Shown here: piece after piece, positions 1 to 14,900 of the stretch
Position numbering within the stretch: the first letter of the stretch is position 1
Layout of the letters: each line of letters opens with the position of its first letter
NCBI RefSeq assembly: GCF_032854445.1
Contig: NC_088302.1
Span: forward strand, 33,573,979-33,637,978
Origin: Liolophura sinensis
Taxonomy: Eukaryota; Mollusca; Polyplacophora; Chitonida; Chitonidae
Direction: 5' to 3'
Length of the DNA: 64,000 nt
Translations under genes and position numbers: made by a program
The notes under the pieces: generated by a model
Databases searched by the model: none
What the model was told of the DNA's origin: nothing
Seen by the model: the letters and a program-made list of their open reading frames with translations, nothing else

Positions 1-1287
1 TTTTTTTCGATTTTGTTAGCAGCAGAACTCCAACACCGTTCAACATAGAAGTTCAAAATTTTGCACACATAATCTAGCGGAAATTTTCTAGGGGTATATT
101 TTTTTTTTTTTTGCTATGTCACGTGGTTCGGCCACCATATTGGATTTTGTGTATAATCTTTAAAAATCTTCTTCTCCAGAACAACTGAACCGATCATTGT
201 CAAATTTAACATGCAACTAGTAGGTCATGAGTTCTTTAAAGTTTGCGAAAATGGTTTACTTCCGATCAAAACTCTGGAAGCTCGCCATTGGTCGAATTTA
301 TGACGTCACAAAAAGTTCTCAAAGTTCATTTGTTCTGAACGAATTCTGATGTATCTTGAGCTGCTGATTCCGAATCTGGTTGTATTTTTTGCATATCTGT
401 GTAACTTTTTGAGATATGAGCAAAAAACTAAAAAAATTACGTAATTTCAATGGCGTTTTAATCGAGAACTATGGCAGCTAGAAATGTGCAAATTGCATGA
501 AAATGTAGTTCAAGACACGCTCTTTCGATCATTCGTCAACGGATTTGAGCTCCGATCAATAGTTTTCTCGCTAGAAGCGTTTAAAAAACAACACCGTTTT
601 TGTTTAGAAAAAGATGGGAATCCTATTGCTTTAACATGGAGTTAGATGGGGAATGGACTGGATTTGCAGTATTTGACCTGATGCTTTCGGCTACACTGTC
701 CGTGATCTCCCGAAACGGTTGTAGGATGACATTCAGCTATACAGTACTATATTAGATGGCGTAGAGATCTAACTACAACAGTAAACGGCATGCAACTGTA
801 AAAGTTAGCTTTGTTTTGCGTAGACCTCGTCCTCTTTACTATACGTTAAACAGACCAGGGTGATTGACAGATATGGACATGTGCCCTGGTATAACTGCTG
901 ACTTTCTAACGATGGCCGAGCTATCAGTGGAGCTGTGAGTCTGTGCATGGCAGGTCGTAGATTGAGATGTGAATCTTCAAACTTGCTGTTACACTGGTCG
1001 TGTTTTTGCCTTATTTCTTACAATTAGCGGGCTAAGTCTGCCAAGAAACGACCGTTTTTCACTAGGCATAGCGTAGCATCATCAAGGTCTCCGATCTATT
1101 CGAGGGAATGCAAATGACTGGCCGACTGCCTCAGTGACAAACGGTGTAAGGTCGCATGGAAACTTTAAAAGCCGTGTATGTGGCGCATGTATCCTTCGAA
1201 TTCGAACTTCGAAACATGAAGGAGAAAACGTCACCGATCCGATCCGGGATCCCGGCCTAGGATCTGCTATTCGCAGATCCATTCTAG
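1..1287 (+). mobile_element. Helitron-like repeat, copy A (5' end cut by window)
   Basis: First of three tandemly placed copies of a ~1.3 kb AT-rich repeat. The same text (for example the stretch after TTGTTAGCAGCAG) recurs at offsets of about 1304 and 1316 bp. The copy ends in an 8-bp perfect stem GGATCTGC/GCAGATCC (1260-1267 and 1273-1280, loop TATTC), then ATT and CTAG (1284-1287). A 3' hairpin a few bases before a terminal CTRR is the classical Helitron 3' signature, but no Rep/helicase ORF is present. It would therefore be non-autonomous. An ordinary tandem satellite is the main alternative. Confidence 0.55.
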
Positions 1288-1290
1288 TTA
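1240..1290 (+). repeat. Conserved palindromic 3' terminus (copy A)
   Basis: Two adjacent palindromes, CCGGGATCCCGG and the hairpin GGATCTGC-TATTC-GCAGATCC, precede CTAG. The same block occurs at 2557-2603 and 4728-4775 and is the best conserved part of the repeat. Confidence 0.8.
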
Positions 1291-1307
1291 TTATTATTAT
1301 TTTTTTT

Positions 1308-2600
1308 TCACCGACCTTGTTAGCAGCAGAACTCAAACACCATTCAATATATAGATCTCAAATTTTGTACACACAATCTGGCGGAGATTTTCTAGACATA
1401 TAATTTTTTTTTTTTTCTCATGTCACGTGGTTCGGCCGCCATATTGGATTTTGTGTAAAATCTTTAAAAATCTTCTTCTCCAGAACCACTGAACCGATCG
1501 TTTTCAAATTTGACATGCAGCTAGTAGGTCACGAGTTCTTTAAAGTTTGCGAAAATGGTTCACTTCCGGTCAAAATTCTGGAAGCTCGCTATTGGTCGAA
1601 TTTGTGACGTCACAAAAAGTTCTCAAGGTTCAAATGTTCTGAACGTATTCTGATGTATCTTGAGCTGCTGATTCTGAATCTGCTTGTATTTTTTTGGTAT
1701 CTGCAAAACTTTTTGAGATATAAGCAAAAAACTCAAAAAAGTTACGTAAGTTCAATGACCTGTAACTCGAGAACTATGGCAGCTAGAAATGTGCAACCTG
1801 CACCAAATTGTAGCCCAAGACATGCTCTTTCGAGCATTCGTCAACGGATTTGAACTCCGATCAAAAGTTTTTTCGCTACAAGCGTTTAAATGACAACACC
1901 GTTTTTTGTTTAGAAAAAGACGGGAATCCCATTGATTTAACATGGAGTTAGAAGGGGACTGGACTGGGATTGTAGTATTTAACCTGATGCTTTCGCCTAC
2001 ACTGTCCGTGATCTTACGAAACGGTTGTAGGATGACATTGATTCCAGTTCCCATCTAACTCCAGTACTCTATTAGATGGCGTAAAGATCTAACTACAACA
2101 GCCAACGACGTGGACCTGTAAAAGTTAGCTTTGTTTTGCGCAGACCTTGTCCTCTTTACTATACGTTAAACAGGCCAGGGAGATTGACAGATATATATAT
2201 GTGCCCTGGTCGAAGTGCTGACTTTCTAACGATGGCCGAGCTATCAGTGGAGCAGTGAGTCCGTGCATGGCAGGTCGTGGATTGAGATGTGAATGTACAA
2301 ACTTGCTGTTACACTGGTCGTGTTTTTGCCTTATTTCTTACAAATAGCGGGCTAAATCTGCCAAGAAACGACCGTTTTTCACTGGGCATAGCGTAGCATC
2401 ATTAGGGTCGCCGATCTATTCGAGGGAATACAAATGACCGGCCGACTGCCTCAGTGATAAACGGTGTAAGGTCGCATGGAAACTTTGAAAGCCGTGTATG
2501 TGGAACATGTGTCCTTCGAACACAGAACATGAAGGGGAAAACCTCATCGATCCGATCCGGGATCCCGGCCTAGGATCTGCTATTCGCAGATCCATTCTAG
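1308..2600 (+). mobile_element. Helitron-like repeat, copy B
   Basis: A full-length-looking copy of about 1293 bp starting at TCACCGACC (5' TC, as expected for Helitrons) and ending at CTAG (2597-2600). The 3' hairpin is at 2573-2593. It is separated from copy A by a short T/TTA-rich spacer (1288-1307). It is closely similar to copy A over its whole length with scattered substitutions. Short ORFs inside are broken and unsupported. Confidence 0.55.
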
Positions 2601-2623
2601 TTCTTATTATTATTATTTTTTTT

Positions 2624-2778
2624 TCACCGACCTTGTTAGCAGCAGTTACTCAAACACCGTTCAACATAGAGGTCTCAAATTTTGTACACACAATCTGGCG
2701 GAGATTTTCCAGGGGTACATTTTTTGTTTTTTTCTTATGTCACGTGGTTCGGCCGCCATATTGGATTTTGTTTAAAAC

Positions 2779-2809
<31 letters not shown>

Positions 2810-4772
2810 ACCGATCGTTTGCAAATTTGACATGCAGCTAGTAAGTCACGAGTTCTTTAAAGTTTGCGAAAATGGTTCACTTCCGGTCAAAACTCTGGAA
2901 GCTCGCCATTGGTCGAATTTGTGACGTCACAAAAAGTTCTCAAAGTTCAATTGTTCTCAGCGTATTCTGATGTATCTTGAGCTGTCGATTTCGAATCTGG
3001 TTGTATTTTTTGCATATCTGTGTAACTTTTTGAGATATTAGCAAAAAACTCAAAAAAGTTACGTAACTTCAAGGACCTGTAACTCAAGAACTAAGGCAGC
3101 TAGAAATGTGCAACCTGCACCAAAGTGTAGCCCAAGACATGCTCTTTCGAGCATTCGTCAACAGATTTGAGCTCCGATCAATAGTTTTCTCGCTAGGAGC
3201 ATTTAAATGACAACACCGTTTTTTGTTTAGAAAAAGATGGGAATCCTGTTGCTTTAACATGGAGTTAGATGGGGACTGCACTGGGTTTGTAGTATTTGAC
3301 CTGATGCTTTCGGCTACACTGTCCGTGATCTCCAGAAACGGTTGTGCTATGACATTCAGTCCAGTTCCCATCTAACTCCAGTACTCTATTAGATGGCGTA
3401 GAGATCTAACTACAACAGCAAACGACGTGGACCTGTAAAAGTTAGCTTTGTTTTGCCCAGACCTTGTTTTCTTTACTATACGCTAACCAGGCCAGGGTGA
3501 TTGACAGATATGGACATGTGCCGTGGTCCAGGTGTTGACTTTCTGACAACAGCCGAGCTATGAGTAGAGCTGTGAGTCTGTGCATGGCAGGTCGTGGATT
3601 GAGACGTGGAAGTTCAAATTTGCTGTTACACGGGCTGTGTTTTTGCATTATTCCTTACATAAAGCCAGCCAAGTCTGCCAAGGAATAACCGTTTTTTCAC
3701 TGGGCATAGTGTCGCATAGGGAATGATCGGCCGACTGCCTCAGTGACAAACGGTGTAAGGTCGCATTTAGACATTAAAAGCCGTGTAGCTAGTTATGTGT
3801 TGATTTTCGACCAATAACTTATGTTCTCATATAAAAGATGAAAGCATAAAGAAAATTTGTATGTAGACTTGAAGTGAGGTTTGCGACTTCCTTGGGGACT
3901 ACGTGAGATATACAATAGTGTGGGTGGTAGGGGAGATGCTGGCGAAATTTTCTAAGACTTGACCTAATTACACAAGGATTTAAACGCTAACCGTCTTCCG
4001 TCTGCGTGGTGTGACGCCTGTCAGTCATGTCAGAGTTCGATCCCAGCTTAGCCAATTTGTCAGGGGATAAAAATGTTGTGAATTTTAAGGTTTCAAGTAG
4101 GCTGCTAGGCGTAGTTCGATGTTCTGATGACGAATTTGGTTGTTTTTCCTTTGTCCGACGCATGGTTTTGTCGCCAATTGCCATCAAAGTGCGAAAAAGT
4201 GCAATTTTTGCCCATGTTTGGCCGTCACGTGACACAAAACTGCTGCAGCTGTGGAGCTGAAAATCACTGAGTACAAAGGGCAATATGCGCACTGTAGGCG
4301 TGCGTAAAATCATGGAAGTGTGTCAATAAATGTGGGAGTTGCAATGCTTCAAATATTGTCCAAGGGCCGATTGGCTATATTTGGCACTTTGACGTCCCCA
4401 TGTTATATGATGCATTTTAAATGCATTTGCGACTGGGATAAAGGCACGAACAATGTAAGCATGCTACCCGACGTAGTTTAACGTCCTGATCATGAATCTG
4501 GAATTATTTCTTTCCGGAGACGCATAGTTTTGCTGCAAATGGCGATGAAAACGCGAAAAAGCGCAATTTTTCACCATATTTGGAGATCTATTGCGAGGAA
4601 ACCGTAACAGCCGTAAAGCTGAAAATCACCGAGTGCAAAGCGCTAAATACGTACACTATGTGTGCCGAAAATCTTTGATCTGTGTCAACAACCACAGGAC
4701 ATGCAGGGGAAAATGTCATCGATCCGATCCGGGATCCCGGCCTAGGATCTGCTATTCGCAGATCCATTCTAG
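2624..4772 (+). mobile_element. Helitron-like repeat, copy C, with a different 3' interior
   Basis: The left ~1.15 kb (2624 to about 3790) is homologous to copies A and B. It then departs into ~930 bp of different sequence before ending in the identical hairpin (4745-4765) and CTAG (4769-4772). The private segment contains two diverged direct repeats of ~362 bp period: GACGCATGGTTTTG near 4157 and GACGCATAGTTTTG near 4519. A shared terminus with an exchanged interior is typical of rolling-circle elements that acquire sequence. Confidence 0.5.
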
Positions 4773-4814
4773 TTATTATTGTTTTTGTATTGAGACTTTG
4801 TCATTTTGACATCA

Positions 4815-5908: not shown

Positions 5909-8900
5909 GTAGGTGTCACATACTACTTGTTATGTCAACGATAATCATTTTTCTGTGTAGTTTAGTGAAATATTCTTGAGTACAGTGTAACACACCAGTC
6001 AAATAAATAAAAATATTCTGTTGAGTTCACGTTTCCAGGCTGCTCACTTGTGCTGTTTTCCAGTATTTTGCAGCAGTATATATTTAGTATAGCATACCTA
6101 ACCGCTCTTCCTACAGGTGGCTAGTCGGCACAAGCATTGTTTCTTACGCTTATTTCAAAGACATCATAGCCTGGAATTATGGAAAATTATGTTATTCCTG
6201 GAAGTTGCTTTTTTTTTTTTTTTTTTTTGTAAAGAGGCCTGACCCGCTAAGTCCTGTGGCTGAAACTTGCTCATAAATGTATGTCTGACTGCATTGTGGG
6301 ATGTTGTATAAAGTGATATTATTCTGGAGCCACTTTCACACAGCGTCAAGTGCATTTGCAATTGCTGCTTAAAGCTTAGCTACGTTTCCCTATATGCTCA
6401 GTATATAACTTTTTTCTAAAACAGGGCCTAGTGTATGGTAAAAAAAAAAAAAACAACAAAAAAAAAAATGAACCAAAAAATAAAGGCCATCATCAAGTAC
6501 AACTAAAAATGCCTTTTTAAAGGCATATAAATGTTAAAAGATATTATTTTCGGTGCTGAAACGTACAAGTTTCCAGTAGAATGTCATCCCATGTTCCAAG
6601 TAAACTTCAAAACACCTTTCTAAAATCAGAACTCACAGAATCAGGAAAAATGGGCAAGGTAGTCATGGACGATATTTATGGTATATGTGGAAAAAAACTA
6701 TTGGTCCTCTCATCGCAGGTTATCTTATCATCAGAGACTGGTAGACACCTGTCCAGAGAGCTTCTCCAGCCTTCTGCCCATCAAGCCTGCAGCATTTTAC
6801 AAGTACGACAGAGAGGGTGCAGGTGTGTACACATGTAAAAGTATTTGAGGTTAAAAGAAAAAATAAAATATGAAATGCATGCATTTAACTGGAGCTCTGT
6901 AAGCATGCTACATTTTCAGTTTGGTAAGAATGAGTATGAGTGATATATCCATGTATTCTAATTTCAGCAGGTCTCCTTAACTTCTGGGTTCTTCCACCTA
7001 TAAACTTGGCTGCCATCACATGAGTGAACAGTTATTGAGCATGGCATTGAACAGCAATCAGATAACTAAATGAATTTAATTAAGCACATATTTTTGATGA
7101 AGTGAAGATTGTATCAGGAAATTAAGATGTGAGAGCTGCTTTTGTGGCTTAACATCATAATCTTTCATTTTGCCTCTAATATATCGGCCATGTCAGCATG
7201 GGAATATCGAAGTTCAGTGGTCTCTCAGCTGCTCCAGCAGGTAGACGGTATGAAATTAGTGTGTTGAAGAATCTGCTTCTCTCAAGAAACATGAGAGAGT
7301 CAGGTCTGAACAATTCCTGCAGACCACTAGTATTTGCTTTTCCTCCAAAACTTGGAGATCTCTCATCCATTCTAGGTATTTTGGGGGAAAGGCCTGACTC
7401 TGGGTAAGTACAGATCATCTCTGATTGTGTTTGTAGGAGAGTTACCTGGCACGATGGTGGCTCACAAACTCATGCAGGCCATCAAATCCAAATGTTCTCC
7501 GGAGGAAGCAGCTGAAATACTGAAGGAATTACCCAACCCATTAGCAGAGGAAGAACGTGAGTATAGGGAGAAAGTAGCAGAGAGCTACTAAAAATAAGTT
7601 GCATTAAACCAATAGCGTTTAGATACACTGTCATAGGGCATATGCAACTCGGGTAAGACCACAAAAGAGCATCTCCTTGGCAGACAGAAGACCAAGGTTC
7701 AATCCTGAATTAGATCAAGTGTCAGACATCAAAATCCGCAATCCTCATCACATGGCACTCAGCATAATCAGTGGTCAAAATAATCTGCCTGTCTCAGAAA
7801 GGTAACTTTTTTTTCATCTTTCACTTAGAAAAATACCTTTCTGAGACAGGTGAATTTAAGATGACTGTTCTTGGATTTTTTTTTTTTTTTTTTTGATTGT
7901 TGTTTTGTGCCGTACTCAAGAATATTTCACTTATGCGACGGCGGCCAGCATTATGGTGGGTGGAAAACGGGCGGAGCCCAGGGGGAAACCCAAGACCATC
8001 CCACAAAGTTTTGAGAAAGTGTCACTACGTACCTCTGGCACATCTGTGTAATCGAACAGCCTGAAGACGACACTGGGGAGAGGGTACTGGACATCCTCAT
8101 GGTGCCCGGGGGGAATGATCTGAGGTAAGGTGTGCTGTAAATCCTCACTGAGCACGCTGTCAAACGCCAGGTACGGTCGTAACACCTGCTTCTCCAGCCA
8201 CTTGTTGTTCCGCAGGTTGGTGATTTGTGCCCACAATGAGTCCAGGTACTGTAGGACGAACGCAGGCAAAAATACATACATCACGTTTTTTCATCTGTCA
8301 CTTAGAAAAATACCTTTCGGAGACAGGTGAATTTAAGATGACTTTTTTTTTTTTTTTGATTGTTGTTTTATGCCATACTTAAGAATATTTCACTTATGCG
8401 ACGGCGGCCAGCATTATGGTGGGTGGAAACCAGGCAGAGCCCGGGGGATACCCACGACCATCCGCAGGTTGCTGACAGACCTTCCCACGTACAGCCGGAG
8501 AGGAAGCCAGCATAAGCTGGTCTTGAACTCACAGCGACCGCATTGGTGAGAGGCTTTTGGGTCACTACGCTGCGCTAGTGCGCTAACCGACTGAGCCACG
8601 GAGGCCCCTGACCATTCTTGGAAGTTTCTGAAATATTTTGGGACAAAATTCAGTATATTCATCTTAGAACTTAAGAATTTTCTTTTCAGTTTTGACACCA
8701 TCTGTTTTTTGGCCATTCTCTGTATTGAAAGTGCTGCATTTTTTTTCTATGGTAGGATTAAACTCATGACAATTATTGTTATCTTTACTTTGAAATGTAT
8801 GCAACAGTATCATGTAAATTAGGGATGAAAGGACCTGGCATGGTCATGACGGTAAGGCGAAGAATCAGACCCAGAAACGGATTATAAGAAAGTGCAAATT

Positions 8901-11900
8901 TCAAAATGCCAGCTCAGTTCTGTAAATTTTATAGAAGAGATGGTTGCTTAGTAATAACTGGCCAAATATGTACTCTCGATCAAAAACACCAAGTGTCGAA
9001 ATTTGAAAGACATCCTTCATGATACAGTGAACTAACAAAGTCACTGTGGAGAACGCGTAGCACTTGGAGAAAGAGTTCAAAAGAAGTGGTTTATTTCTCT
9101 TTCACTGGAAACATTTTTTTGTGTGAGTGAAGTGATAAGCTAACATTTATAAAATACATGAACGTGTTTTCATGAATCAGAATTAAGATACAGCTGTAAT
9201 TGTAAAAGCATGCTAATACATGTGGTAACTAAATCAAAATCATACGTCAGTCAGGCTGGACAGCACATGTGGTCGCCTATCATGACCTTACCATGCTACA
9301 GTATGTGTGATATGTACTATAATTGTAAGGCTGAAAGTTACATTTGTTATATATTTGTTTATAACTGGAAAAGAGAATTAAGGCAGAGCTGAAAACACAA
9401 GAGGCTTTACATTGCTATAGTCATTTTTGCTTTTTGAGGGGCACATTTTTTTGCACTTGGCCTGATTCCACCACACATCCCCTACCCCACCCGTATCATA
9501 CCAGGTCCTTTGCACCACATCAAAAAAGATCCTACAGTCGTTCACACAGTGACTTGTAATTTGTATTTTAAATCAAAGCAATACTGCAAGGATATTCTGT
9601 TTATGTTTTGCAGATGAGCCGTCCCATCATCCGCTGAAGATTGATGTTTTTGTGTCCACGTTACTTCATTTGGCTCAGAAGTCCTTCAGTCATTCCTTCG
9701 CAGCTATAGCCAAGTAAGCATGCTGTCTTGTCTGTAGGGAAGGAGGGGTATTTTACCAAACTGAGGTTATTAATAAAATAGTGGTTATTAATGAAAAAAG
9801 GACAGATGGTCTGGATGGTTGCCATGTATTATTAGCAATTGGGTGCTTTACATAGGTCCCTGGTTCGACACCCAGTATGTTTTGAGTCCGTGTTCTTCAC
9901 TAGAACCTGACTGTGCTGTACCCCGAACGTGTAAGTTCTAAACAGCGATAATGCTTCTACCAAAACTGCAACAACTGGTTGACTCATATCAGTATAATGG
10001 ATCGGCCCGCGCGGCTTGCTCACCTTCGGTAAGGTGTCTGAGTGAAGCAGCACTAGATAAAAGAGCGGTGGAAATCCGTCCTGTAACAAGGAGGCACATT
10101 ACATATGACTGAAAAATTTTTAAGTACAACACTAAACCCCAAGTACCCACACACTCACTCAATCTACCAAGACTGTTTTTAAATAACATTCACAAAACTG
10201 ATATGTTCATCTATGAAAGCTGTGTCATTACTGATCTTCCAGAGAAGTAATGCATAATCAACCAGTCAACTACCACCTATTTTTGGGAGACGCCTGTTGA
10301 CTGATTATTATTAGTTCGTTGACATGTGATTAGGTGTTTGACTTTGAGGTGGCTGGTTCCTGCAGTGGTTAGGTATATGTAATTTACAGCGTTATAACCT
10401 GCGGTTTACCCATGAAGTATCAATTCCAAATAGCAGTAAGATCACACCAATTTATATTTTTCTTATATGGGCAGAATAATTTTTTTTTAAATGTCAGAAG
10501 AAGGTTTCACAATAAAAATAAAACTGGAAAATCATCTTGTATGCGAGAAATGTGAAGTCATTAGGCCTCTTGAAGCCATATTTTCATGATCAGAAAACCT
10601 TGCACAAACAACACCCAAGATCAGATAAAATAAAAAGGTAGACCTTAATTTTTTTTTTTTTTCATTTTTGCCAGGAAATGTTGTTAGAACTCAACTTGCA
10701 TTTGAAAAGAAATTTGTCGAGTCGTACAGAACCCATACAAATCCATGATAACGTGTCGTTTTCTCTGACAAGATACAAACACCTTCAGCTTGCCCAGCTG
10801 TGAGATCAGTTGGGGTGACATCACCTGAAACTGTGATATTTACAGTCATTAAGGAGTTCTCAACTCCATTGCCTTAGTCTTTTCTTGGGTAGCCATGTAT
10901 GAATTCAGATGTTTTCCTACAGTTACATTTTGTGTTATACACCTGTTGATCCTCTGATAATTTGACTAGATTTGGTAAAGGTTGTGTTGATCTGTAAAAA
11001 AAGTAAAATAACCTACAACTAAACTCGTGATTTAAATTTTCAGATTTCACTTTCTGCTGAAAAGTCTGGCGGAATCAGAAGATGGTCAAATCTGCATTTT
11101 AAAAACAATGTTTGAAGTTTGGGAAACTCATCCACAGGTTTGTCGAACTTTTTGATACTTATTTGGATAAAAATCTTTCGGCAGATTTCACTTTTTGTTG
11201 AATAATTGTGGGCCAGAAAGCTTAAAGGCAAAGCCACATTTTTGTGGCAAAGTCATTGTGATATGTTTGTGTTAATGAGACTGAAGAATTATAATTATTT
11301 TCTTTGTTTTAGATGATGGTGGTGTTGGTGGACAAAATGCTGAAGACACAGATTGTGGAATGTTCTGCTGTGGCTAATTGGCTATTCTCAAATGAAATGC
11401 AGCCACAGTTTACCAGGTATGAGAGCAGGATCTGTCTCAATCTCAAATCTGTGATCTGTGTAATGATATAGAAACATTGTGGTCTCTGAGCACAGTGATG
11501 CAATGGAACTTGCCAACACCAACACTTCTGAAAACCGACATTGAGTCAATACAAACCATCTCACCTGGCCTACTTTTATCTCAATTTACCACCCGTGTTA
11601 TTTTTATTGAATAAACCACCGCTTGTGTATTGTGAATACCAATTGGCAGGGTTCTGCCCACAATCTTCGAGCGCACCCGGCACTAGGGTTGAGTGCCCAA
11701 TGTCAGACACAAAATCTTGATGTGCCCAGCACGCCCATAAAGTGTAATCATGTTAAAACGAACATTTTTTTGTGCTACCAGGCAGGATTGGTTTACACAA
11801 ATTTTATTTTATGAACTTTATGATCTCTGATTGTGATGGTATAAACTTTGTGATCCATGATTGTAATGGTAAAAACTTTGTAATCCATGATTGTAGTGAT

Positions 11901-14900
11901 ATAAACTTCGTGATCCGTGATTGTAATGGTATAAACTTTGTGCTCCATGATTGTAATGATATAAACTTTGTGATCCCTGATGGTGATGGTATAAACCTTG
12001 TGATCCATGATTGTAGTGATATAAACTTTGTGATCCCTGATTGTAATGGTATAAACTTTGTGATCCCTGATTGTAATGGTATAAACTTTGTGACCCATGA
12101 TTGTTATGGTATAAACTTTGTGACCCATGATTGTAGTGATATAAAGTTTGTGATCCCGGATTGTAATGGTATGAACTTTGTGACCCATGATTGTAATGAT
12201 ATAAACTTTGTGATCCCTGATAATGATGACACAGTGCCTCTTGTTATAGGTTCTATGTGTGGGAGATCATGCACAGCACAATTAAGAAGATGAGCCGTCA
12301 TGTGGAGAAGTTACAGGCTGAGGTGGATGATGCCCGGGACAGGCTAGAAGTGGCCCAGAGGAGGGTATGGCTTTATGCTGTCCAGTTGTTTCAGAGCTGT
12401 AGATTTTCTGTTTGTTGTATGTTACATGTATTTTTTTGAGTGTTGTACCTTTTTCAGCATCGCGTGATATGAGCGCTGCACCTTGTCAGTGATTTGAGTT
12501 TCACTGTTGTAGCTGAATATCTGTGTTCATATATTTCTTTGTTTTTCCTCAGAATTGTAAAATGTCATATCTGACCTTATCTTACATATGGTGTGTTTTC
12601 ATTCTGTATCTCATCTGCACTTGTTCTTAGCTTCTGTTGTCCGTCTCTTGTTCAGTTTTATTTTCAGTTTTCTTTTTAGTTCCTCATCCTGTGATGGTTT
12701 TTTCGGTCCACCATCTCATCCTCTGATGATTATTTTAGTTCTGTCCCATCTTCTGCTGTTTGTTTCAGTTTTCTGTCACACCCTTTGATATTTGTTTCAG
12801 TTTTCTGTTTCATCCTCTGATGCTTGTTTCAGTTTTCTGTCTCATCCTCTGATGCTTGTTTCAGTTTTCTGTCTCATCCTCTGATGCTTGTTTCAGTTTT
12901 CTGTCTCATCCTCTGATGCTTGTTTCATTTTTCTGTCTCATCCTCTGATATTTGTTTCAGTTTTCTGTCTCATCCTCTGATGCTTGTTTCAGTTTTCTGT
13001 CTCATCCTCTGATATTTGTTTCAGTTTTCTGTCTCATCCTCTGATGCTTGTTTCAGTTTTCTGTCTCATCCTCTGATATTTGTTTCAGTTTTCTGTCTCA
13101 TCCTCTGATATTTGTTTCAGTTTTCTGTCTCATCCTCTGATATTTGTTTCAGTTCTCTCAGATGATCTGTGTTTAAGCTATCTCGTCTCATCCTAAAATC
13201 TCTTAAAATCTGTGTCAGTTCTCTCATCTTTTTCTTGGTTATCGTGTCCTCTATGATCTGTGTCTCGGTTATCTCCTCCTCTTATGATCTGTCTTGGTTA
13301 TCTCCTCCTCTTATGATCTGTGTCATGGTTATCTCCTCCTCTTATGATCTGTGTCATGGTTATCTCATCCTCTTATGATCTGTCTTGGTTATCTCCTCCT
13401 CTTATTATCTGTCTAGGTTATCTCATCCTCTTATGATCTGTGTCATGGTTATCTCATCCTCTTATGATCTGTCTTGGTTATCTCCTCCTCTTATGATCTG
13501 CCTTGGTTATCTCATCCTCTTATGATCTGTGTCTTGGTTATCTCATCCTCTTATGATCTGTGTCTTGGTTATCTCATCCTCTTATGATCTGTCTTGATTA
13601 TCTCCTCCTCTTGTGATCTATGTCCTTGTTATCTTATTCTCCTATGATCTCTGTTTCCATTACATGTATCTCACTCACCTGTGATGCGTGTTTCAGGGAG
13701 AGGACATGGAGTACCGTGATGCAGACATGCCCACAGAGGAGATGATAGAAAGGATGGAGGAGAGACTGGAGACAGCGCAGACAGAGCAGAAGGGACTCTT
13801 CCTCATCATCTTCCAGGTTAGCCTTCACATGTTAAACCACAGTCCTGTGACTAATTGATGTTGTGAAAATGATCTATGTTGATTAGGTTAACAAAAAGAC
13901 ACTTGAATGTTAGCAAAGAATGTTAAAAGACAGTTTCACAAAGTAATTTAGAGTAGATGAATGATGAAGAAAGTTGAGGAGTTAGACATTGTGAACTGGA
14001 GAAGTTTCTAAAGAAAAGAGGTGTCATTTGTGTCACTGGAGCACAGCGAGACAGGTGATGGATAATTAATATTCACAACGATTTGCCTATCATATTTCAC
14101 AAGTCACGTGATAGAGTAGGACTGTTTATACCTTTACTCTCAGAAGAGTTCGATGTCAAAACTCCCCAATTAGATAGAAAACCTATTTACTACGGCATAC
14201 ATGCATACCTTTATGACAACTGTTTTGTGTGTTGATTTCAGCGATTCATCATCATCTTGACGAATCACCTGGCTCGCTGTGAGGGGGAGGGGATTGATTA
14301 CAACACACCCTGGTACAAGTGGGTTAGTGAGAGACTCCAGCAAATCTTCTTACAGGTGAATGGACATAACATCAGTATCTTATATACTGTGAAGTACATA
14401 TGGAACTAATTTTCGCAAATTTCACAGTCAGGAATTTACCGCGTGTAAACGAATTCCAGTGTAAACGAATTACAGTGTTGAGTCGTATATTACAAGCAGT
14501 AGTATCAATAAAGCTGGCAGGAGTGTGGAGAAGAAAACCTGGCAGGCCAGGTAAAGTTTAACAGCAGAGAGGGAAGATTAGGCTTCAAATATATGTATAA
14601 AAAATCAGATTACGAGGATTAGCGGCACTGCAGGAAACAAAAGAGGATTAGAGCCACCCTTGATTATACCTGTTTAACATCTGCTTTAGTAATTTTCAGG
14701 CCATTTTATTGCTAGGGCAGTTATACAGTTTTACTATTTTTTTCAGTAATGCCTTGATTAAATACACAAAAATTAATTCCTGCACCCATGTTTGAAGTAA
14801 ATCTGGGAAAATGAATTCCAGCGAATAATAAGTACTTAACATAAAATCTTTGGATTTCCCCTTGTGGCTTTCCCCTTGGGTTCTGCTCAGTTTCCTCCCA

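What the first reader, a model, noticed from the sequence alone, without database searches (positions are those of the whole stretch)
7788..8610. An intact NCBP1 exon sits backwards inside an intron of NCBP1 itself
The minus-strand exon 8033-8248 keeps both splice sites, phase 0-0 and a full 72-codon frame clearly homologous to CBP80 residues ~230-300. It is antisense between exons c and d. If it is a recent duplicate, the sense pre-mRNA contains an antisense copy of its own upstream exon. It could pair with the authentic exon and influence splicing, circularisation or editing. If it is the only copy, the gene is inverted here or the assembly is wrong.
Basis: partly seen in the sequence, partly recalled or inferred. 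Interest (0 to 1): 0.78.

Follow-up and report, generated by a model that had tools for sequence, protein, structure and literature searches.

The report
Backwards copy of an NCBP1 exon
In a chiton, a DNA-copying or repair slip appears to have pasted a reversed copy of one exon of the cap-binding gene NCBP1 into a later intron of the same gene, while the real exon stays intact in its proper place, so the copy is most likely inert.

Summary
Window 8033-8248 (-) is an intact NCBP1/CBP80 exon (human residues 228-299) with both splice sites, phase 0-0, in the intron between + exons 7437-7556 and 9614-9713. The chiton assembly (Liolophura sinensis) settles the open alternatives. The real exon ("exon 9" in my numbering) lies 28.5 kb upstream on the + strand, in order within NCBP1. 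The window copy is an extra one (208 of 216 bases identical), the only extra NCBP1 exon a whole-genome search found. The gene is not inverted. An assembly error is unlikely: the copy differs at 15 of 303 bases, against 1.24% reported heterozygosity.

The junctions suggest its origin. One end joins the loop edge of a DNA hairpin to the donor at a shared AAA. At the other end the sequence changes, within a SINE-like element, from donor-like to resident-like. The hairpin-side flank and SINE 3' part are duplicated on both sides. This fits template switching or a templated insertion during break repair. The copy's one amino-acid change falls on a residue that is alanine in 203 of 203 listed relatives. 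I rate it an inert antisense pseudo-exon; a role through RNA self-pairing is possible but untested.

The parts
8033..8248 (-). Inverted copy of NCBP1 exon 9 (72 codons, phase 0-0, both splice sites intact)
   Evidence: 208 of 216 bases identical to C8:33553299-33553514
7986..8288 (-). Stretch taken as donor-derived: exon plus 40 nt of upstream and 47 nt of downstream intron, starting at the shared AAA
   Evidence: 288 of 303 bases identical to the donor site; alignment
7788..7850 (.). DNA hairpin (arms 7788-7809 and 7829-7850) whose loop edge is the start of the duplicated flank
   Evidence: pair I16; -20.9 kcal/mol, z -7.45, 0 of 200 shuffles as good; one of two such hairpins in 103,979 bases, the other a TA run
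7809..7866 (+). Flank F, left copy
   Evidence: 56 of 58 bases identical to 8286-8343; only these two places found genome-wide
7880..7985 (-). Left copy of the SINE-like 3' part; resembles the resident element from about 7978 downwards
   Evidence: 7880-7963 vs 8343-8426: 81 of 84 identical, T-run included; diagnostic sites
8286..8343 (+). Flank F, right copy; lacks the left hairpin arm
8343..8608 (-). Resident SINE-like element, about 266 nt with a T-run at its left end
   Evidence: similar full-length copies at window 45650 (92%) and 55523 (86%)
7862..7875 (+). Left half of the probable target-site duplication of the resident SINE-like element (right half at 8609-8622)
   Evidence: 12 of 14 bases identical (sequences printed)
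8609..8622 (+). Right half of that probable target-site duplication
7437..7556 (+). NCBP1 exon 16 (upstream neighbour of the host intron)
9614..9713 (+). NCBP1 exon 17 (downstream neighbour of the host intron)

Best explanation
It is an inverted partial duplication within one gene. About 300 bp carrying NCBP1 exon 9 was copied from 28.5 kb upstream and written backwards into intron 16 during break repair or replication restart. Inferred steps: (1) a break or stall at the loop of a hairpin in intron 16; (2) the free 3' end, ending in A's, primed at AAA 40 nt upstream of exon 9; (3) synthesis ran through exon 9 into a SINE-like element just downstream of it; (4) the new strand returned to the intron by pairing with the oppositely oriented resident SINE-like element, leaving flank F and the SINE 3' part on both sides of the insert. 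The copy has since drifted, is not part of the listed NCBP1 protein, and most likely does nothing. Shown: the duplicate, its orientation, the junctions and the flank duplication. Inferred: the break, the order of the steps, and the lack of function.
For: Second, plus-strand copy in order within the gene. Flank F is found at only two places in the genome search, both bordering the insert, and the second lacks the left hairpin arm. The hairpin is one of two of its kind in 103,979 bases and folds far better than shuffles. Donor homology runs into a SINE-like element beside exon 9. Between 7978 and 7900, 15 of 17 diagnostic bases match the resident element rather than the donor, while 7987 and 7980 match the donor. 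Local duplicates (5 of 142 bases different) and donor-derived sequence (15 of 303) are similarly diverged, p = 0.63, as one event predicts. The only amino-acid change hits a residue that is Ala in 203 of 203 listed relatives.
Against: No empty site from a related species was available, so the ancestral intron is inferred. Three of the 20 diagnostic sites break a single clean switch: 7994 is resident-like before the switch, 7969 and 7917 donor-like after it. The AAA overlap alone could be chance. The hairpin could be a product rather than the cause: the literature notes that template switching makes inverted repeats (PMC7954356, passages). The 6-of-8 synonymous share among exon differences is a little high for a neutral copy (P = 0.06).
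Confidence: 0.8

Rival explanations
1. RNA-templated patch: a fragment of unspliced NCBP1 pre-mRNA was reverse transcribed and inserted, by LINE-type retrotransposition or as a repair patch.
For: The donor is transcribed, the inserted piece is short, and a T-run plus direct repeats flank it. Class 1 insertions show duplicated recipient sequence and class 2 may use RNA patches (PMC5110952, passages).
Against: The piece is unspliced. Next to the T-run the sequence follows the resident element, not the donor (15 of 17 diagnostic bases from 7978 to 7900), so the tail is not a copy of the donor RNA's end. The donor's own AATAAA beyond the SINE-like part is not in the insert.
Confidence: 0.12
2. Functional self-antisense: the copy is kept because its RNA pairs with exon 9 and affects NCBP1 expression (small RNAs, editing or splicing).
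For: 288 of 303 bases could pair, with perfect runs up to 96 nt. Arms would be 1,176 nt apart if introns 9-15 are removed and intron 16 is kept. 6 of 8 exon differences are synonymous. Drosophila hairpin-RNA loci can arise beside their targets (PMC10317233, passages).
Against: Arms are 28,496 nt apart in the primary transcript. No transcript or small-RNA data were available. Changes on the authentic exon's own lineage can supply synonymous differences. The flanks (7 of 87) are not clearly more diverged than the exon (8 of 216), p = 0.14.
Confidence: 0.04
3. Assembly artefact: a chimeric or misjoined read placed exon 9 here.
For: HiFi coverage is only 14x (PMC11068029, passages), and I had no reads to map.
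Against: A chimera would be identical or differ at allelic level (heterozygosity 1.24%). The copy differs at 15 of 303 bases and the local flank copies at 5 of 142. The mean read of 8,347 bp could span the whole 0.8-kb structure.
Confidence: 0.03

Closest known systems
Template-switch insertions (FoSTeS/MMBIR type, and the short-range template switches described in great apes, PMC7954356)
   Same: An inverted piece copied from another template, microhomology at one junction, local duplication, secondary structure at the switch site
   Different: The donor is 28.5 kb away rather than local, and the return switch used similarity between two SINE-like elements
Templated sequence insertion polymorphisms, class 2 (PMC5110952)
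   Same: A patch copied from a distant genomic region, with microhomology, fitting break repair
   Different: Same gene rather than an apparently random donor; recipient sequence is duplicated at the junctions, which that paper lists for class 1; polymorphism was not tested
Hairpin-RNA loci of Drosophila (PMC10317233)
   Same: An antisense partial copy of a gene close to its source
   Different: Here both arms lie in one protein-coding transcription unit, far apart before splicing, and no siRNA evidence exists

Membership tests
Inverted duplication of an NCBP1 (CBP80) exon | A second, authentic copy in the same genome in normal order and orientation | tested here: met
Template-switch (FoSTeS/MMBIR-type) insertion | Microhomology at a junction | tested here: met
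   AAA shared at the right junction; only 3 nt, so weak
Template-switch (FoSTeS/MMBIR-type) insertion | Ancestral (empty) sequence shows that the insert arose by copying in one event | not testable with these tools
   No related chiton genome was available; the assembly tool reported no relatives for it
Class 2 templated sequence insertion | No duplication of recipient sequence at the junctions | tested here: not met
   Flank F and the SINE 3' part are present on both sides; hence not filed as class 2
Class 2 templated sequence insertion | Polymorphic in the population | not testable with these tools
   One assembly only
Class 1 / LINE-mediated retrocopy | Poly(A) added to the 3' end of the copied donor RNA | tested here: not met
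   Sequence next to the T-run follows the resident element, not the donor
Hairpin-RNA (endo-siRNA) locus | Dicer-dependent small RNAs from the duplex | not testable with these tools
Coding exon in use | Present in an annotated protein of the species | tested here: not met
   The listed L. sinensis protein P0122 holds the authentic Ala form and not the Asp form; other isoforms were not searched for

The most novel reading that the evidence does not exclude
The chiton NCBP1 pre-mRNA carries its own antisense. When introns 9-15 are removed and intron 16 is still present, exon 9 pairs with its copy 1.2 kb away into about 300 bp of nearly perfect double-stranded RNA, which Dicer or ADAR then act on. 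This would be a built-in feedback on a subunit of the nuclear cap-binding complex, which itself serves splicing and small-RNA processing (the latter from general knowledge).
Probability: 0.04. Interest if true: 0.7.

Novelty: new member of a known kind. Interest (0 to 1): 0.27.

Why it matters
It is a clear natural example of one exon being copied and flipped within its own gene, with a hairpin at one junction and a pair of oppositely oriented SINE-like elements at the other, both still readable. It shows how antisense exon copies inside introns can arise without a poly(A) retrocopy, and that an intact exon on the 'wrong' strand need not mean an inverted gene or a bad assembly. If the RNA pairing were real, it would be a simple route to self-regulation.

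Tried and rejected
Rejected: sole copy or inverted gene. A further NCBP1 exon copy elsewhere: 23 matches, of which 22 are the gene in + orientation and 1 the inverted copy (the tool calls counts lower bounds). Known RNA families at the gathering threshold and tRNA genes in the window: 0 and 0. A poly(A)-tailed retrocopy.

Mended on the way: a neutrality test run with a miscounted 7 of 9 was repeated with the true 6 of 8. The first control for low-copy inverted pairs used mean multiplicity and dropped the NCBP1 pair itself; it was repeated with the median. A first splice model for exons 12-13 was wrong and was corrected. The script stopped with an error after printing the exon table.

Literature: the search for 'inverted duplication, exon, intron, antisense, intragenic' found 21 papers, 15 listed; no listed title or abstract start describes an inverted self-exon in an intron. 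That is no proof of absence. The mollusc SINE search was seen as a listing only, and I did not assign the SINE-like element to a named family. Its genome-wide copy number was asked twice and never answered.

Full report
What was checked. The minus-strand stretch 8033-8248 is an open 72-codon exon that aligns end to end with CBP80, residues 228-299 of a 790-aa chain. It has an AG acceptor and a GT donor and phase 0 at both ends. It lies between + exons 7437-7556 and 9614-9713 of NCBP1.

Where it comes from. The window is C8:33573979-33637978 of a 609-Mb, 632-contig assembly. A protein search with the joined exons returned a 790-aa NCBP1 of Liolophura sinensis on a contig of 58,388,612 bases, the length of C8. 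Size and scaffold count agree with the published chiton genome (PMC11068029, passages; species name corrected in PMC12441733, text read). Exon numbers here count from the first exon I located (about residue 16), so true numbers may be one higher; residues 1-15 were not placed.

The second copy. The search with the 216-bp exon found two places: this one and C8:33553299-33553514 in + orientation, 96% identical. tblastn of five relatives on 103,979 joined bases placed NCBP1 exons in order on the + strand, with the window copy the only minus-strand match. Exons 9-23 join with AG/GT borders into exactly residues 233-790 of the listed protein. A whole-genome search with the 790-aa protein gave 23 matches: 22 are the gene on the + strand and one is the inverted copy. 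So the gene is not inverted and the real exon is not missing. No other exon has a spare copy that this search could find; very short exons could be missed.

Anatomy of the insert. Read on the minus strand, homology to the donor begins at AAA, 40 nt before the exon. It runs through the exon and its donor site into a SINE-like element that follows exon 9 in the same orientation. Of 303 bases taken as donor-derived (7986-8288), 288 are identical. Intron 16 carries a SINE-like element of about 266 nt on the minus strand (8343-8608), with full-length relatives at window 45650 (92%) and 55523 (86%) among 24 matches in the 104 kb. Its probable target-site duplication lies outside the whole structure, 7862-7875 and 8609-8622, 12 of 14 bases. 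The element was therefore there first, and the insert with the duplicated pieces came later.

The return junction. In the left SINE-like part, 89 of 97 bases match the resident element and 76 of 97 the donor. Of 20 sites where the two differ, 16 match the resident and 4 the donor. The donor-like bases are 7987, 7980, 7969 and 7917; from 7978 to 7900, 15 of 17 are resident-like. The simplest reading is one switch between 7980 and 7978. Sites 7994, 7969 and 7917 do not fit it and need later changes or a patchy switch.

The other end. Flank F (7788-7880) was found at two places: itself, and from 8286, where only its bases 22-93 match. Base 22 is 7809, the edge of the loop of a hairpin with 22-nt arms (pair I16). 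The hairpin folds at -20.9 kcal/mol, z = -7.45, with 0 of 200 shuffles as good. In 103,979 bases two hairpins met the same criteria (arms of 22 with at most 2 mismatches, loop 3-40), the other a TA run. The duplicated flank thus begins where a hairpin tip would break. Inverted repeats are known fragile sites (PMC3855049 and PMC7999016, search listings with abstract starts only). Because template switching can itself create inverted repeats (PMC7954356, passages), the hairpin may also be a product.

One event, and its age. Ungapped local duplicates differ at 5 of 142 bases and donor-derived sequence at 15 of 303, not different by Fisher's test (p = 0.63). The right copy also lacks about 10 nt beside the T-run. 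Both values exceed the reported heterozygosity of 1.24%, so the event is probably not very new, although the donor could have been a divergent allele. I give no date; no mutation rate was tested.

Is the copy alive? Eight bases differ in the exon: six synonymous codons and one double change, Ala to Asp. The site is alanine in 203 of 203 relatives of 700-880 aa taken from the two protein searches; these are best-scoring lists and many are close kin. If the copy were neutral and the real exon changed only synonymously, at least 6 of 8 synonymous has P = 0.06, or 6 of 7 events P = 0.023. If all changes fell on a neutral copy, P = 0.005. This leans against 'all changes on a neutral copy' but is met by changes on the parent's lineage or a different donor allele. 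Exon (8 of 216) and flanks (7 of 87) do not differ clearly, p = 0.14. An open frame is expected after so few changes: the chance of no stop is 0.65 for nine changes and 0.82 for four.

How unusual? With filters of 150 bp, 88% identity, 60 kb distance and low copy number by median, a separate 200-kb sample of C8 gave 3 pairs, all direct, and the 104-kb NCBP1 region gave 1 pair, this one. Without the copy-number filter, 0 of 19 pairs in the sample and 3 of 136 in the NCBP1 region are inverted. With looser limits, 4 further low-copy inverted pairs of 80-85% identity appear in the 104 kb, touching no exon that I mapped.

RNA pairing. Exon and copy could pair over 303 nt with perfect runs up to 96 nt. 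In the primary transcript they are 28,496 nt apart. With introns 9-15 gone and intron 16 kept they are 1,176 nt apart. Whether this happens cannot be tested here. The nearest precedent I read is Drosophila hairpin RNAs arising beside their targets (PMC10317233, passages).

Verdict. A known kind of mutation with an unusually readable history: an exon copied backwards into its own gene between a hairpin and oppositely oriented SINE-like elements, now most likely an inert antisense pseudo-exon. Copy, orientation and junctions are shown; the mechanism steps and the lack of function are inferred.

Noticed in passing
window 1-4800: Several copies of a unit of roughly 1.3 kb seem to follow one another in NCBP1 intron 13, which is 22,478 nt long. 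Seen by eye; the tandem finder, limited to periods of 500, did not list them.
   Followed up: no
window 11810-12221: Minisatellite of 30-bp units, 13.7 copies, in the intron just before NCBP1 exon 12250-12364.
   Followed up: partly
window 12714-13650: Two adjacent minisatellites (32-bp units, 14.0 copies; 31-bp units, 13.9 copies) before NCBP1 exon 13697-13816. The first has TTTGTTTCAG, a splice-acceptor-like string, in its consensus unit.
   Followed up: partly
L004:4614-5272 (C8:33548593-33549251): A 39-bp tandem array (17.5 copies) starts about 13 bases inside the mapped end of NCBP1 exon 4 and fills most of the following intron, so the exon end seems to be part of the repeat.
   Followed up: partly
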